NCBI GenBank assembly: GCA_905250025.1
Contig: CAJNOJ010000101.1
Span: 288,883-352,882 of the forward strand
DNA length: 64,000 nt
Source of the DNA: Adineta ricciae
Lineage: Eukaryota > Rotifera > Eurotatoria > Adinetida > Adinetidae
Reading direction: 5' to 3'
Position numbers and translations under genes: made by a program. Positions 57,544 to 64,000 of this stretch are shown here, piece after piece. Below the pieces are notes generated by a model that did no database searches, was not told where the DNA came from, and saw nothing but the letters and a program-made list of their open reading frames with translations. How positions within the stretch are numbered: position 1 is the first letter of the stretch; each line of letters opens with the position of its first letter.

Positions 57544-58999
57544 ATGTTTTCTTGGTTTCGCCAAGACCCGAATACTGATGCTGATCCCAAACAGCATTTA
57601 ATGGGCTCAGCAGAGAATGCACTGATGCAAGCTTCTCATAAATTTCAAGGATACATGAAATTTGGAGAAGTCCTACATCTTCAAGGCCCATGGATTTCTG
57701 TGGATATGTTGTCCAGGGCAGTTTGTGATTTACAACGTCGTCATCCAATTTTACGCACTCGTCTTCGAATGATGCCGGATAAATCGGATAGTTTTTTTCT
57801 TGAAGAAGATGAAACCGTTCGATTGAAAATTCGCGACATAGCACGAAAAAGTACCGATTGCCAGACATTTTGGCGTGACGAATGGCGACAACGAGAAAGA
57901 GATACAACGACTGTTGGCGAAGGACTTATCGAATTTTGGCTTCTCCAGGTACGAAAGAAATGAACTTACCTTTTGTAGTTGTCTTCCATTCGAGGATCCG
58001 GAAGATGTCAATAATAACAACAGCCCACAAGAAATTATGATCATTTCTGAACATGCTGTGAGCGATGGTTTATCTCTTAGCAATATGGCACATGAACTTC
58101 TCGTTGCTCTATCTGGTGAAAATGAAGATCTATTCAAAAACTCATTAGATTGGCCCATAACAATGGAAGCAGCCGCACGAAATAGCCTTACAATGTTTGG
58201 TAGAGTGATGACACTCACTCGATTTATTTTCTCAGCGATTTATTTACGTTCAACAAATCGATTACCGACTGCAAGAGTGCCTCTTGCACCTATCGAATTC
58301 CCATTAACTGACTTGATCAATCATTCTCATACCGAAGCTTCTTACCTTCTATTAAACAAAGAAGACACTCAGGCACTACTCTCAAAATGTCGTCAACAAA
58401 ACGTGACAGTTACTTCGGCAGTCAGTGCTGCAATCCTATGTGCTCTTTCAACATTTGTCAAATCTGATGCCAATCAACCTACACTTTTGAATTTTTCTAT
58501 TGGAGCCGATACTCGTCGACGATGTACACCGCCTATTCCAAATCATGATTTTCGTTATCATGTTTCAGGTTTGATGTCATTTACAATACCAACAAATGAT
58601 ATTCCAACAACAACTGAAAATATTTGGCAACTAGCGAGAAATTTTGGGGATCATATGAAGTCATGTGTTGATGCTGGTCAAATCCTTGCTCTTGGTTTGA
58701 TCATGGGAAAACTGTATCAGAAAACGTTCGGTGAACCAAATCTTAATGAACTTCCAACTTGTGGTGTATCCAGTTGGGGAATTTTACCCTTCAAAGAAGA
58801 ATATGGACGATGGAAGTTCTTGGGTATGACTCCATTTGTTAATATGATTCGTGGAGTGATGCCATTTACTACTATTCAAACTGTAAATGGAGTTTTAACT
58901 GTAATGTATGTTGGAACTGATCCGGTGATTTCAAAAACCGTTTTAGAAGGTCTCCGCGAGACTACAATGAACAAATTGCAACAGATGATTCATGGTTGA
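57544..58999 (+). CDS. Condensation-domain (PapA/NRPS-C-like) acyltransferase with apparent frameshift
   Basis: Resembles acyltransferases of the NRPS condensation/PapA5 superfamily, which move acyl groups from CoA or carrier thioesters onto alcohols or amines. From ATG 57544 (MFSWFRQDPNTD) it reads MGSAENALMQASHKFQGYMK, LQRRHPILRTRLRMM and GLIEFWLL in one frame. It then continues one base out of phase with CLPFEDPEDVNNNNSP and the catalytic xHxxxDG in IISEHAVSDGLSLSNMAHEL. Later blocks are VTSAVSAAILCALSTF, NFSIGADTRRRC and VSSWGILPF. The frame change falls between 57875 and 57961. No GT–AG pair restores phase; the only candidate is 30 nt, phase-neutral. So it is a recent pseudogene, a sequence error or an unusual splice. 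Such families in bdelloids are usually considered acquired from microbes. Confidence 0.72.
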
Positions 59000-59086
59000 C
59001 TTTTCCTCAGCTTAGTTTTCTGAAAAACATTTATTTTCATTAAAACAAATTCTGCAAAAATAGACACTGAATCGACCGGCTACGTG

Positions 59087-60058
59087 CTATGAATGAGGTA
59101 TTGTATTGGCTATACGATTAATCGGTACATTTCGTGTTAATATTGATGTACGCTCATTTTTTCGCTGGAATAACCGTCGACATTCCTTCCGAAAGTTTCG
59201 TGATGTACAAAAATAGACATAAAATGTCGAAGCACTATTGATATAAATAAGAAACGAATAAGCCATATAGGTAATAAATGATTCGATTTGAAGACGCAAC
59301 GTTGTTTTTGCAAGATTCGACGTTACGGTTAAATAAAGTGTTTGAATCGGATATGGCGTTGTTGAGAAAATATAAACAATTACTTCCCATAGTAACATAA
59401 TCATCAGACTAAAATCTCTTCGACGGATACGCACATAGGTAACATCATCATTTGTTCGGACTCGATTATGAATTAGACGTAAGTTACGCATTGTTTTCAA
59501 TCCAAAGATGATCATCAGTATTGGAGGAAGAGTGCCAGCAACAAGAAAAGAATAAATACTGTAAACGAAACTGTACGTACCAAAGGTACTGCATCGTCCT
59601 GATTGAATTGTTAATAGAATTGGAATATGTAAAGATATGATTGGCCATGTTATGATCACACAAGCAATGACACGAACTGCTACTTTTACTTGACAATATG
59701 ATCGAATGTATAGAGATGTACAACTCAATGCACAACGATCTAGACAAGCGAAAACTACCAAGGATCGACTGATCATCAGAGCCGAATGTAGAAGATACAA
59801 GCGTAATTTACAAAATGCTAACAGATACAATTCCGGATTGGGATGATCAAGAGAATAAAGCGTTGGAATCATTCCATAATTAATAATAAAGATGTTGATA
59901 AACGAAGCGATGAGAAGGTAACGTGAACAAGAATTTTTCCGATATTCTTTTCGATAAAAAACAAATACATTAATGATATTACCAAAATTTCCAAAGACTA
60001 AATAAGTGCTCATTCCATAACGCGTCAGACTTGCTTGTATGTCAGCTAGAAACGACAT
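59087..60058 (-). CDS. Intronless seven-transmembrane receptor of a bdelloid-type family
   Basis: Single exon, 323 residues from ATG 60058 (MSFLADIQASLTRYGMSTYL). Seven hydrophobic segments, with TM1 GNFGNIINVFVFYRKEY, TM2 SRYLLIASFINIFIINYGMI, TM3 ISRSLVVFACLDRCALSC, TM4 VIACVIITWPIISLHIPIL, TM5 SFLVAGTLPPILMIIFGLK, TM6 SLMIMLLWEVIVYIFSTTPYP and TM7 FIYINSASTFYVYF. The usual DRY is DRC and NPxxY is replaced by NSASTFYVY. This layout is common among the large, lineage-expanded, chemosensory-like GPCR sets of rotifers. The ligand is unknown. Confidence 0.75.
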   Translation of the reverse strand: MSFLADIQASLTRYGMSTYLVFGNFGNIINVFVFYRKEYRKNSCSRYLLIASFINIFIINYGMIPTLYSLDHPNPELYLLAFCKLRLYLLHSALMISRSLVVFACLDRCALSCTSLYIRSYCQVKVAVRVIACVIITWPIISLHIPILLTIQSGRCSTFGTYSFVYSIYSFLVAGTLPPILMIIFGLKTMRNLRLIHNRVRTNDDVTYVRIRRRDFSLMIMLLWEVIVYIFSTTPYPIQTLYLTVTSNLAKTTLRLQIESFITYMAYSFLIYINSASTFYVYFCTSRNFRKECRRLFQRKNERTSILTRNVPINRIANTIPHS

Positions 60059-61415
60059 TTCTTCAGAATGATACAACACATATGCTTTCTGCTAATAAAT
60101 AATTATACGAGAAGATAGATGTAGTCTTTCGTCTAAGAGTATTTTCCTCAAGCTAATTAGAAAATATGCATTATTATTAATGAGATGAAGATTTTACATA
60201 TGAGCACGCAAGTTTGACTTCAAAAATATAGTAATACATACTTTCCTCTGGTTAACTTTCCATTTTGAGCTACACTATTCTTAATTCTGGATCAGTAGCG
60301 AAGATTGAGAGTGATAGGATAAAACTGAACCGTTTTCTACGAACGTCTGAATTTTATAAGTTTATGGAAAGCATTTTTCTCGACGATTAACAAATAAAAC
60401 GAGACAATACGTGCTACTAGTTCAACACTACTCGACTTTGTAATGATCAATTGGATCTAAAGAGAATTATCAAAGATTCTTTCTTTCGTACGGTGAATCG
60501 AAATCTAAGAAGAGTTTTGATAAAATTTCCGGAAGGTAAACGCCTGTGAGCATCAAGACGATATCTTCTATTACAATTAATTAATTATGGAAACAGAACA
60601 CAGACTAATCAAGAGTGTACTGCTGGCTGCAAGTTTCATACAATTGCGACGATGTTTAGCGAAAGAATTGCGTATGTTAATTACATGGCGCTTTCATTTA
60701 TTTTTCCTTCTCGAAAATGGCCTCAATCCTAAACATCAGATAAGACAGATTCATACTAGAACAATTCTATTCTGATCCTTGAATAAGCGAGAAGGTCTTT
60801 CCCAGTGCATTTTAGTCTCAAGAGATTTTCATAGATCATAAAAATATCCAGAAGTGTAGAAAGAAGTCGAAATATACGCGACACATCTTTCATGGTTTTT
60901 CACATAATCTATTCGTTTGCGATCTTCGCTCTTTAGGAATATGTACTCAGACGAAGATTTATGTCACAGCGCATCTTAATGCTTTCTTATACTGTTCGAG
61001 ATGCCAAAAAAACGTTTTCATTATCTTTAGTGATGAGGGATAATGCAGAAGCTCATTGCCTCTCCAAGACAGAATTTTTGTTCTGCTATGACTTCAATAA
61101 AATAAATACAGCTTAAGATTCGAAACAAGTTAAATACTGGATCAACACATTTTTGAATGCTGTAATAGAATGACCTTCATCGAAATTTTCTCGTTCGGGG
61201 TAAAAACGTGACTGATTTTGAAGACGATTTTTCTTCTCATAGATTGACTACTATTTCTCTCAATTCAGAAGCACGTTGCTTTTCAATCCATCGTATATAG
61301 TTTGGCTGTTGTAATGCGAATAATTTTCTCATCAGAATTTCTTCTGCAAACTGACGCAATATCTTTCCTATAAAAACCTACTTCTTCTAGATTAAAAACC
61401 AAATCAAAACTAACC
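60059..61415. other. Intergenic region between divergent GPCR and leucyl-tRNA synthetase fragment
   Basis: 1.36 kb with no recognised gene. Holds the promoter of the plus-strand leucyl-tRNA synthetase fragment. One open frame at 60587–60775 has no domain. Confidence 0.45.
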
Positions 61416-62720
61416 ATGGCACCGCCAACAAAGGCAACATCTGCTGCCGCTGCTTCCACAGCGTCGACAGAAAAACGGTCTACAGTTAAACTCGACACAG
61501 TTCGAGATATCGAACAACAAATGCAAAAACTATGGGCTGATTTGAAAGTATTCGAAGCTGATGCACCTGTACAATCAGCCGACAAGTTAGATTTCTTGCT
61601 TTTTCTATTGAATACCATCGAACTGAGTATTTCTCTTTACACATTAGTTCCAATACTTTCTTGGTCACGTTCCCGTACCCATATATGAATGGTCGTCTTC
61701 ATCTTGGTCATACATTTTCATTATCGAAATGCGAAGTAAAGTATTTTTGTTGTTTGTCTTTGACTGCAGATTCTTGTCGTTTAGTTTGCCGTGGGTTTTC
61801 AACGTCTTCGTGGTAAACACTGTCTGTTTCCATTTGGATTCCACTGTACAGGCATGCCTATTCGAGTAGGATTCGCTATTACAAATAATCTATTGATCTC
61901 TTGTCTTCTGTTTTAAAGACAGCTGCTGATAAATTAAAGCGCGAAATGGAAGAATTCGGTTATCCACCTCAATTTCCTGTACCAGCGACTGAGAATGCTG
62001 AGGAGGAGAAAGCTGCATCAGCATCAGCAAAAGAGAATGAAAGCAGCAAAGTTGTTAACAAGGCAAAGAGTAAAAAGGTAAATTGTTTTTGACGATTGAC
62101 ATTCGAAGAAGATAATTTGCTTGTTGCTATTATTTAGAGTAAAGCAGCAGCTAAAACTGGAGGTGAAAAATATCAATGGCAAATCATGCGAAGTATCGGA
62201 ATTGATGACGATGAAGAGATTCGACGATTTACTGATCCGCTCCATTGGATTGCCTATTTTCCACCACATGTCAAACGAGATCTCGAAATGATGGGCTTGA
62301 AGGTACTGAGAATACCTTAGCATTCGAATTGAACATCCTTCAATGAATATTTAGGTTGATTGGCGTCGATCATTCATCACAACAGATGCCAATCCGTTCT
62401 ACGACTCATTCGTTCGCTGGCAATTTCATCATTTAAGAGATGGTGGAAAGATTGAATTTGGTAAAAGGTAATTCTTCACATTCACTTGCCATTCCTCGTA
62501 TATATTTGATTTCTTCTATCCTTTCAGATACACAATCTATTCGCCAAAAGATGGACAACCTTGTATGGATCATGATCGAGGCAGTGGTGAAGGTGTAGCA
62601 CCGCAGGAGTATACATTAGTTAAACTTCGTATTCACGATGATCACATTCCTGAGAAACTCAAACCTCATGTAACGTCATCGACAGCTGGTGTTTACTTAG
62701 CTGCAGCAACACTTCGCTGA
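61416..62720 (+). pseudogene. LARS1: N-terminal fragment of cytosolic leucyl-tRNA synthetase
   Basis: Seven exons (61416–61585, 61648–61735, 61785–61865, 61919–62077, 62138–62302, 62355–62467, 62528–62720) join in frame for 322 residues, then stop. The class I signature is intact: [20 protein letters not shown] (HIGH motif as HLGH), [32 protein letters not shown]. Also intact are [20 protein letters not shown] and [20 protein letters not shown]. It ends at AAATLR, exactly where the family continues RPETMFGQTN within the editing domain; the next codon is TGA. There is no KMSKS motif, anticodon-binding domain or most of CP1, so it cannot charge tRNA. All introns and the promoter side are preserved, so it is a recent truncation, not a retrocopy. 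It may still be transcribed. Confidence 0.9.
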
Positions 62721-63016
62721 ATGAGAAAACAGAGACTAGTGTTGAATGGAGAAGAACTGATCGTTGAACCTCTATTCTTTGGTAATCCATCAAATAGATT
62801 CATGGCCAATCGATCGATTGAAATACGTACTTGTCCAACACGAAGACAAGAACGAAAGATATCCATTCGATGTTTGTTTGCCCTTTCACTGTAACAACAG
62901 CGAAAGGAACGAAAAGAAGTTGTTTTTTTTTCATGTTTTATTTGAATGAAAACTCGGAAAGATGACAAAGCAAAAAAGAAATTTGCATCGTTCTTCTTCT
63001 TCTCGATTGCTTCTTT
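62721..63016. other. Breakpoint region between the two leucyl-tRNA synthetase pieces
   Basis: About 300 bp without similarity to the synthetase on either strand. On the minus strand it contains AATAAA (62938–62943), the likely polyadenylation signal of the minus-strand gene, about 75 nt after its stop. The truncation point lies between 62717 and this signal. Confidence 0.6.
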
Positions 63017-64000
63017 TTATTCAACGAAATAAACTAAAGCGTTGCCAATATCTTGTTGCTCTGAAACGACTGTTTCATGTTTCAGATCCACTTGTAAAAC
63101 TTGTTGTTTATTGGTTAATTCCACCAAATCTTCTAAGGGTATGTCCATGCTTGGTAATTTTCTCGAATGAAATTGTGAAATTCGAAAATAAAACAAACGA
63201 ATCGTTTTGCTGAACCGTAAAGTTCGATCAGCATGACGTCGTAAGCGTTGCTCCAATTTCTCCACGGTATCACCATTGATCATCGGAATAGTCCATTCAA
63301 AATGACCAGAATAAGATTGTCGATTAATCAAACGAATGGAAATCATTGGTTCATATCGAAAATGAATCAATGGCTTTCCAGGTAAAATCTCTTCCAAATT
63401 GGGAATACTCGCTGCTTCAATTTCATTTTCATCAATCAAACGGATGTCCACTTGTTCGATATTCAATGTTCGTCGAAAATAATCTTCATTGTTTGATAAA
63501 ACTTCATATTCATCAAAAGATAAATGACGATCCAATGCTTGAATATCTCTTGTCTTTTCCAAAAGATCTCGAGAATAAATGACAAATGACATCAATTTCT
63601 TCATGTACTTCTTGTCGATTTCTGGTCGATCTTTGAAGTGTTGAGCTAAAGTTTTTCCGTCAGGAACTTGTCGATTGTTGTTCAAATATAATTCTTTCAA
63701 TTGATTAAGAACAAATATTTGCCACGATGGATATGAACGAGCAATGAAGATCGTCGCATGTGTTGGGTGTAGCGGAGGTTGAACAGGCACTCCTTTGGAT
63801 TTATTCCCCGATTGTTGAGTTTTATAAGCAGTTAAACGAAGACGAAAGTCATGAGCGCTGTTAAGAATATGATTTTGAGAATCGATCAGTTTTTGATCGA
63901 TTTTTCCTCCTTGTGGCCATTTGGCATTCATAATTGTTGTTTGTGGATGAATCAATTGGTAGATATAATCACAAATATGTGGACAAATCGGTGCTAAGAG
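63017..64000 (-). CDS. LARS1: Leucyl-tRNA synthetase, C-terminal part; gene continues past the right edge
   Basis: Attaches leucine to tRNA-Leu in the cytosol. Only the last exon or exons are inside the window: about 327 residues with stop at 63017–63019. Upstream residues LLAPICPHICDYIYQL match the end of the anticodon-binding domain, followed by TTIMNAKWPQGG and AHDFRLRLTAYK. The eukaryote-specific C-terminal domain follows: THATIFIARSYPSWQIF, YMKKLMSFVIYSRDLLEKT, LPGKPLIHFRYEP, SGHFEWTIPMINGDTVEKL and the ending DIGNALVYFVE, all characteristic of the animal enzyme. The sequence is open and unbroken up to the edge. Whether its N-terminal half is complete lies outside the window. Confidence 0.93.
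   Translation of the reverse strand, partial: LLAPICPHICDYIYQLIHPQTTIMNAKWPQGGKIDQKLIDSQNHILNSAHDFRLRLTAYKTQQSGNKSKGVPVQPPLHPTHATIFIARSYPSWQIFVLNQLKELYLNNNRQVPDGKTLAQHFKDRPEIDKKYMKKLMSFVIYSRDLLEKTRDIQALDRHLSFDEYEVLSNNEDYFRRTLNIEQVDIRLIDENEIEAASIPNLEEILPGKPLIHFRYEPMISIRLINRQSYSGHFEWTIPMINGDTVEKLEQRLRRHADRTLRFSKTIRLFYFRISQFHSRKLPSMDIPLEDLVELTNKQQVLQVDLKHETVVSEQQDIGNALVYFVE

What the first reader, a model, noticed from the sequence alone, without database searches (positions are those of the whole stretch)
61416..64000. Convergent, tail-to-tail broken leucyl-tRNA synthetase pair
The plus strand holds the first 322 residues of cytosolic leucyl-tRNA synthetase with seven exons, cut in mid-exon after AAATLR. 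About 300 bp further, a minus-strand leucyl-tRNA synthetase C-terminus begins and leaves the window. Two pieces of the same gene family in opposite orientation imply an inverted partial duplication or an inversion breakpoint through the gene. Palindromic duplicate segments have been reported in bdelloid genomes, and this could be one seen at base resolution, or an assembly artefact of the same origin.
Basis: partly seen in the sequence, partly recalled or inferred. Interest (0 to 1): 0.75.

Follow-up and report, generated by a model that had tools for sequence, protein, structure and literature searches.

The report
Truncated synthetase remnant beside intact paralogue
Two different old copies of the same housekeeping gene sit next to each other in what is probably a bdelloid rotifer, and on one chromosome copy a breakage or joining event has left only the first quarter of one of them beside the end of the other; it is a local structural variant or an assembly mis-join, not a palindrome or an inversion.

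Summary
In detail: window 61416-62717 encodes 322 N-terminal residues of cytosolic leucyl-tRNA synthetase in seven exons, and a minus-strand LeuRS C-terminus runs from 63020 off the window. But the window ends at its contig's end (C101), and the allelic contig C134 shows what the pieces are: two different, old LeuRS paralogues (dS about 1.75) that lie head-to-head there, A (minus) and B (plus). The window's N-terminal piece is B at allelic divergence (dS 0.133); its C-terminal piece is A. Both keep their C134 orientation, and A has its own N-terminus there, so no inversion and no palindrome. Between flanks shared with C134, C101 has 1.41 kb of B where C134 has 1.51 kb of other DNA; the junction 62716|62717 is blunt, same-strand (C134:176449 to 168825) and makes an immediate stop codon. 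Best reading: a recent end-joining repair event on one haplotype, perhaps at the edge of a loss-of-heterozygosity tract (A dS 0.041; no allelic partner found to the right in the stretches tested). An assembly or amplification chimera is not excluded; the remnant shows no decay. Ordinary in kind, modest interest.

The parts
61025..61306 (+). F: block shared with two places on C134, 167026-167313 (allelic place) and 174788-175035 (5' flank of LeuRS-B); these two are direct repeats of each other (85%)
61416..62717 (+). LeuRS-B remnant: codons 1-322, seven exons, start of the class I synthetase catalytic domain; no lesion up to the junction
62716..62717 (.). blunt junction: left side matches C134:176449 (LeuRS-B exon 7), right side matches C134:168825 (3' flank of LeuRS-A); no shared base beyond the join
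62718..62720 (+). TGA stop codon created by the junction
   Evidence: (sequence)
62717..63016 (-). 3' flank of LeuRS-A (97% to C134)
   Evidence: 9 of 303 sites differ, stop codon included
63017..64000 (-). LeuRS-A C-terminal coding part with its stop, open frame to the contig end; the last 121 bases are identical to C134:170528-170648, which continues into the rest of LeuRS-A

Best explanation
The window ends in a haplotype-specific structural variant at a LeuRS pair. The genome carries two old LeuRS paralogues, A (minus) and B (plus), head-to-head. On the haplotype of contig C101 the left flank runs directly into the allele of B, which is cut after codon 322 and joined, same strand, to DNA 0.3 kb beyond the stop of A; A itself is intact as far as the contig goes. 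SHOWN in this assembly: identities, orientation, collinear flanks, blunt junction, immediate stop, A's own N-terminus on C134, and the divergence step at the junction. INFERRED: a double-strand break within the B allele was closed by non-homologous joining to the A-side end, with the DNA to the right taken from, or later homogenised with, the other haplotype (loss of heterozygosity), so the B allele lost its last three quarters. The same product could come from F-primed ectopic copying plus end joining, or from a 7.6-kb tandem duplication plus F/F'' deletion. The confidence given here is for a real direct-orientation join by one of these three routes (about 0.22 inter-homologue, 0.20 F-primed, 0.18 tandem duplication; the last two are also listed as rivals and are part of this figure). 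The remnant is expected to have no function.
For: C134 is largely collinear with window 1-61306 and again with 62717-63507; only the 1.41 kb between differs, 1.51 kb of other DNA on C134. Remnant against C134-B: dS 0.133, dN 0.0134, introns 30 of 336 sites, the level of alleles in this window (20 frames that passed the filter, pooled dS 0.156, range 0.084-0.238). A on C101 against A on C134: dS 0.041, below each of those 20; 8 of 201 against 26 of 213 synonymous sites differ, Fisher p 0.002. C101's last 121 bases equal the start of the C134 piece holding the rest of A, and that piece starts exactly at the first difference between C101 and C134-left. No second copy of X beyond a 45-base match, none of B past codon 322, and no allelic partner for C134 at 181-185 and 211-216 kb; at 184-190 kb only a dispersed repeat matched, but there 40 of 225 candidates were scored. 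Partners of 92-94% return at 241 and 260 kb.
Against: The remnant has, by my reading, about 3-5 of 10 differing residues derived on its own branch. If it had been released for as long as A has diverged (dS 0.041), about 15 would be expected (my arithmetic: half of 0.041 times 753 sites), so it is either younger than that or is really part of an intact allele wrongly joined. C134 errs nearby: of nine N runs in the 185 kb read, two have exactly duplicated ends (220 and 142 bases), a third (170527) 221 bases at 99.5%, and one allelic block seems placed beside itself. The piece after 170527 differs once in 221 bases from C134-left, so 'collapsed' is not exact. At 241 kb two contigs (C131, C11) match at 92-94%, so the partner picture there is not simple. 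No reads, depth or second assembly were available. F's site pattern (18 shared with the allelic F, 7 with the B-side F, 12 unique to C101, 1 three-way, of 246) does not settle which arrangement is ancestral.
Confidence: 0.6

Rival explanations
1. Assembly or amplification chimera: in the animal the C101 haplotype carries a full B allele, and the join to A was made by the assembler, a gap closer or whole-genome amplification close to the contig's end.
For: The junction lies 1.3 kb from a contig end; the remnant looks fully constrained (omega 0.10, no lesion); C134 has join scars. If the genome is the A. ricciae ARIC003 assembly (inference), its DNA was whole-genome amplified; REPLI-g is the kit named for that study's samples (passage), and such amplification makes chimeras.
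Against: No N and no shared bases at the junction, so a graph assembler had no repeat to slip on there. Most amplification chimeras are inverted (406 of 475); direct ones under 10 kb were 11 of 475, and complementary bases were reported in 90.9% of directly joined segments under 10 kb apart (passages, PMC1855051), whereas this join is direct, 7.6 kb and blunt. The rest of the B allele and a second X were not found in the assembly.
Confidence: 0.27
2. F-primed ectopic repair (a route within the best explanation): a break in X on the C101 haplotype, invasion of the direct repeat F'' beside B, copying of 1.4 kb through B to codon 322, then blunt joining to the A-side end, with separate loss of heterozygosity.
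For: F and F'' are direct repeats exactly at the left edge of the copied stretch, and X alone is replaced.
Against: Needs a separate homogenisation of A and of what lies to its right; C101's F keeps a stretch of about 28 bases that the allelic F has and F'' lacks, to within about 30 bases of its end, which leaves little room for the switch.
Confidence: 0.2
3. Tandem duplication of C134-equivalent 168825-176449 (A, F'', B codons 1-322) followed by F/F'' recombination that removed X and the first A (also a route within the best explanation).
For: The junction has the direction of a tandem-duplication join (176449 to 168825, same strand), and F/F'' are direct repeats.
Against: Two steps, with no intermediate seen; needs separate loss of heterozygosity.
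Confidence: 0.18
4. Inversion breakpoint or palindrome through one LeuRS gene.
For: The two pieces read towards each other in the window.
Against: Same relative orientation on the allelic contig; different paralogues at about 69% DNA identity; no blastn self-match at E 0.01 or better in window 58001-64000. One search lists nine inverted pairs of 16-21 bases at 75-82%, which look like chance.
Confidence: 0.02

Closest known systems
Degenerate tetraploidy of bdelloids: homologues and ohnologues (Flot 2013 as described in PMC5916493)
   Same: Allelic dS here is 0.156, and A against B is at ohnologue-like depth (1.75); A. ricciae is reported with homologue KS 0.14 and ohnologue KS 1.27 (passage).
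   Different: A and B sit side by side on one contig; the contigs matching the left flank at ohnologue-like identity (C165, C275) gave no LeuRS match.
Genomic palindromes reported in the A. vaga 2013 assembly
   Same: Related genes in opposite orientation on one contig.
   Different: A reported palindrome is a run of homologous genes in mirror order (definition read). Here it is one pair of old paralogues, and the window's join is in direct orientation. None were detected in A. ricciae.
Collinearity breaks between homologues
   Same: A local break of collinearity between allelic contigs; 8 breaks in 466 blocks were reported for A. ricciae, and many breaks in the two species span scaffold gaps.
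   Different: Base-resolved, with no N at the join, and about 1.5 kb in size rather than block-sized.
Loss of heterozygosity and gene conversion in asexual animals
   Same: Divergence between C101 and C134 drops at the junction, and no allelic partner was found in the stretches tested to the right up to 216 kb.
   Different: Not demonstrated by read depth here; could be collapse or missing contigs.

Membership tests
Cytosolic leucyl-tRNA synthetase (LARS1 type) | class I catalytic N-terminal half | tested here: met
   remnant hits PF00133 and PF09334, each over the first part of the profile
Cytosolic leucyl-tRNA synthetase (LARS1 type) | anticodon-binding, RagD-binding and ubiquitin-like C-terminal domains | tested here: met
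   window minus frame hits PF08264, PF24810 and PF22947; the four solved chains found are all named cytoplasmic leucine--tRNA ligase
Genomic palindrome / inverted duplication | arms of the same sequence or gene in reverse order on one chromosome | tested here: not met
   no blastn self-match in window 58001-64000; the pieces are paralogues A and B, and both keep their C134 orientation
Inversion breakpoint | one side of the junction is inverted relative to the allelic arrangement | tested here: not met
   both sides match C134 on the plus strand
Non-homologous end joining product | blunt or microhomology junction between non-allelic ends | tested here: met
   zero shared bases at 62716|62717; that it formed in the animal is untested
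Loss of heterozygosity tract | doubled depth or identical phased haplotypes | not testable with these tools
   no reads held; only absence of allelic partners in tested stretches and 121 identical bases
Loss of heterozygosity tract | sharply lower divergence on one side of a boundary | tested here: met
   dS 0.133 left, 0.041 right of the junction

The most novel reading that the evidence does not exclude
A base-resolved scar of illegitimate repair between non-allelic sites of two homologues in a desiccation-tolerant asexual animal: a blunt join inside a gene that is at the same time the left edge of a long tract where the other haplotype was copied. If so, the haplotypes were left with complementary damage, B cut on one and A's C-terminus broken by a 20-base deletion and a MITE-like insert on the other, so loss of heterozygosity and paralogue loss came together.
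Probability: 0.2. Interest if true: 0.5.

Novelty: new member of a known kind. Interest (0 to 1): 0.28.

Why it matters
It removes a candidate palindrome from bdelloids, where reported palindromes have been read as evidence of genome structure incompatible with meiosis. If the junction is real, it is a small, datable scar of non-allelic repair with its sequence edges known, useful for asking whether end joining starts loss-of-heterozygosity tracts in these animals.

Tried and rejected
Inversion and palindrome: rejected by the allelic contig. A recent copy of C134's B: rejected, because remnant and C134-B differ at allelic level. An ancient pseudogene: rejected, with no lesion and omega 0.10. 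A functional short LeuRS: not pursued, because the remnant matches only the first part of the catalytic-domain profiles and none of the C-terminal domains. Searching the 82-aa last-exon frame for an independent record ending at the same stop: best hit 87% over 56% of the query; no identical record among the 120 shown of 143. Long-read or transcript support: none held. Naming the species: 130.5 Mb, GC 36.3% (window) and 35.4% (C134 stretch) and the divergence levels fit Adineta ricciae ARIC003 (135.6 Mb, 4302 sequences, GC 35.5%), but the protein search returned no near-identical protein (best bdelloid hits 74-80%), so this stays an inference. Simion et al. 2021 on A. vaga chromosomes is not held; only its title was seen in a reference list.

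The first gene-model script gave wrong exons in part (10 exons for the remnant) and was replaced by the homology-guided one. The frames used for allelic dS were filtered (stop-to-stop of at least 130 codons, at least 120 aligned codons, no stop in C134, omega under 0.35); frames that failed were dropped unprinted, so their number is not given.

Full report
OBSERVATION. Homology-guided splicing of window 61300-63200 against a Rotaria LeuRS gives 322 residues in seven exons, all six introns GT-AG, the last exon (62528-62717) ending ...AAATLR and followed at once by TGA. The minus frame 64000-63020 is the C-terminal 327 residues of a cytosolic LeuRS.

CONTEXT. The window is C101:288883-352882 of a 130.5-Mb, 1033-contig assembly, and C101 ends at window base 64000, so extension on the same contig is impossible. 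Contig C134 is the allelic contig: window 1-61306 aligns in largely collinear blocks to C134:97859-167313 with 6.7% divergence over 60,326 aligned sites. Two further contigs, C165 and C275, match parts of a 5-kb piece of the left flank at 69-88%, as an ohnologous pair would; three LeuRS searches of the genome returned matches only on C101 and C134 (only best candidates are scored).

WHAT C134 SHOWS. C134 carries two LeuRS genes head-to-head: A on the minus strand (C-terminus at 169128, N-terminus near 174.3 kb) and B on the plus strand (aligned 175147-179160). They differ by dS 1.75, dN 0.198 over 1145 codons. Single-N joints lie inside A at 170527 and 173931; A's C-terminus with the left flank, and A's first exons with all of B, each lie in an N-free piece. 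In a tree of 16 proteins A falls outside the ten-row group that holds B and the Adineta and main Rotaria LeuRS; that group has support 82/84, not a strong value, while 99/96 holds A and those ten together; B is next to A. vaga (88/87). So A and B probably parted before Adineta and Rotaria did. The window's plus piece is B; its minus piece is A. Both match C134 on the plus strand: 61025-62716 to 174788-176449, and 62717-63507 to 168825-169615. No inversion is needed. Between the shared flanks C101 has 1.41 kb of B where C134 has 1.51 kb (X, 167314-168824), which has no other copy in the assembly except a 45-base match.

JUNCTION. At 62716|62717 the next base of B and the preceding base of the A flank on C134 both differ from C101, so the join is blunt. 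It runs from C134:176449 back to 168825 on the same strand, the direction of a tandem-duplication join. It changes codon 322 from CGA to CGC and makes TGA the next codon. The joined sequence occurs nowhere else in the assembly; its halves match C134 at 97% and 98%.

DOES A HAVE ITS OWN N-TERMINUS? Yes on C134. For C101 it is inferred: its last 121 bases are identical to C134:170528-170648, a piece that begins after the N at 170527 exactly at the first difference between C101 and C134-left, as a shared graph segment would; C134-left itself differs from that piece once in 221 bases. That piece and the next (after the N at 173931 with 220 duplicated bases) hold the rest of A.

DATING. Remnant against C134-B: 322 codons, dS 0.133, dN 0.0134, omega 0.10; introns 30 of 336 sites; 1 of 109 sites just upstream of the start codon. 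Twenty filtered open frames of the left flank give pooled dS 0.156, range 0.084-0.238. So the remnant is an allele of B, or a copy of one, not an old pseudogene. A on the two contigs differs by dS 0.041 over 320 codons and by 9 of 303 flank sites, below each of the 20 frames; total divergence that low (2.06%) occurs in 1 of 47 non-overlapping windows of the left flank. Divergence therefore drops at the junction. To the right, C134 at 175-180, 181-185 and 211-216 kb found no allelic partner apart from the LeuRS pieces and more distant matches; at 184-190 kb only a dispersed repeat matched, with 40 of 225 candidates scored; at 241 kb (C131, C11) and 260 kb (C332) matches of 92-94% return. This fits loss of heterozygosity, but also assembly collapse.

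AGAINST. Ten residues differ between the remnant and B; by my reading against nine other sequences, three to five changed on the remnant's side. Neutral decay for as long as A has diverged would give about 15 (my arithmetic). Either the truncation is younger, or the remnant is part of an intact allele. C134 shows assembly scars (joints with duplicated ends; a 2.7-kb block apparently placed beside its own allele at 111.7-121.1 kb). Amplification chimeras are a concern if this is ARIC003 (whole-genome amplified; passage), but published junctions of that kind are mostly inverted and usually have complementary ends when under 10 kb apart (passages).

LITERATURE. Nowell et al. 2018 (PMC5916493; one whole section and passages) detected no palindromes in A. 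ricciae and 8 collinearity breaks in 466 blocks. Jaron et al. (PMC7953838, passages; first author recalled) report 19 palindromes in A. vaga and none in three other bdelloids, and warn of scaffolding artefacts. A population-genomic study of A. vaga (PMC7749112, passages) found a single palindrome in a new assembly.

VERDICT. What remains is a local, haplotype-specific truncation of one LeuRS paralogue beside the other: probably a repair scar, possibly an artefact.

Noticed in passing
C134:169616-169951 (L010:9616-9951): A MITE-like insert of about 336-338 bases with inverted ends (CCCAGGTC...GACCTGGG) and an AT duplication, plus a 20-base deletion, interrupt the C-terminal coding part of LeuRS-A on C134; C101's copy lacks both. 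Related stretches lie at C134:253.6 kb (88%) and 108.3 kb (77%).
   Followed up: partly
C134:179160-179178: LeuRS-B stops before the C-terminal ubiquitin-like domain that A has; of the first 12 hits listed, three (P0005, P0008, P0012) also lack it.
   Followed up: partly
C134:111723-121070: Two 2.7-kb copies, 94% identical, with single-N joints at 118323 and 121071: probably two alleles placed in one contig by the assembler.
   Followed up: no
C134:182360-202187: An inverted repeat of about 1.8 kb at 73% identity (182360-184105 and 202187-200430), with a single N at 184103.
   Followed up: no
C134:185505-186380: A dispersed repeat of about 0.87 kb with dozens of relatives, mostly at 73-86%, over the genome.
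   Followed up: no
C134:167314-168824: X, 1.5 kb of DNA found once in the assembly, present on C134 where C101 has the LeuRS-B remnant; content not identified.
   Followed up: partly
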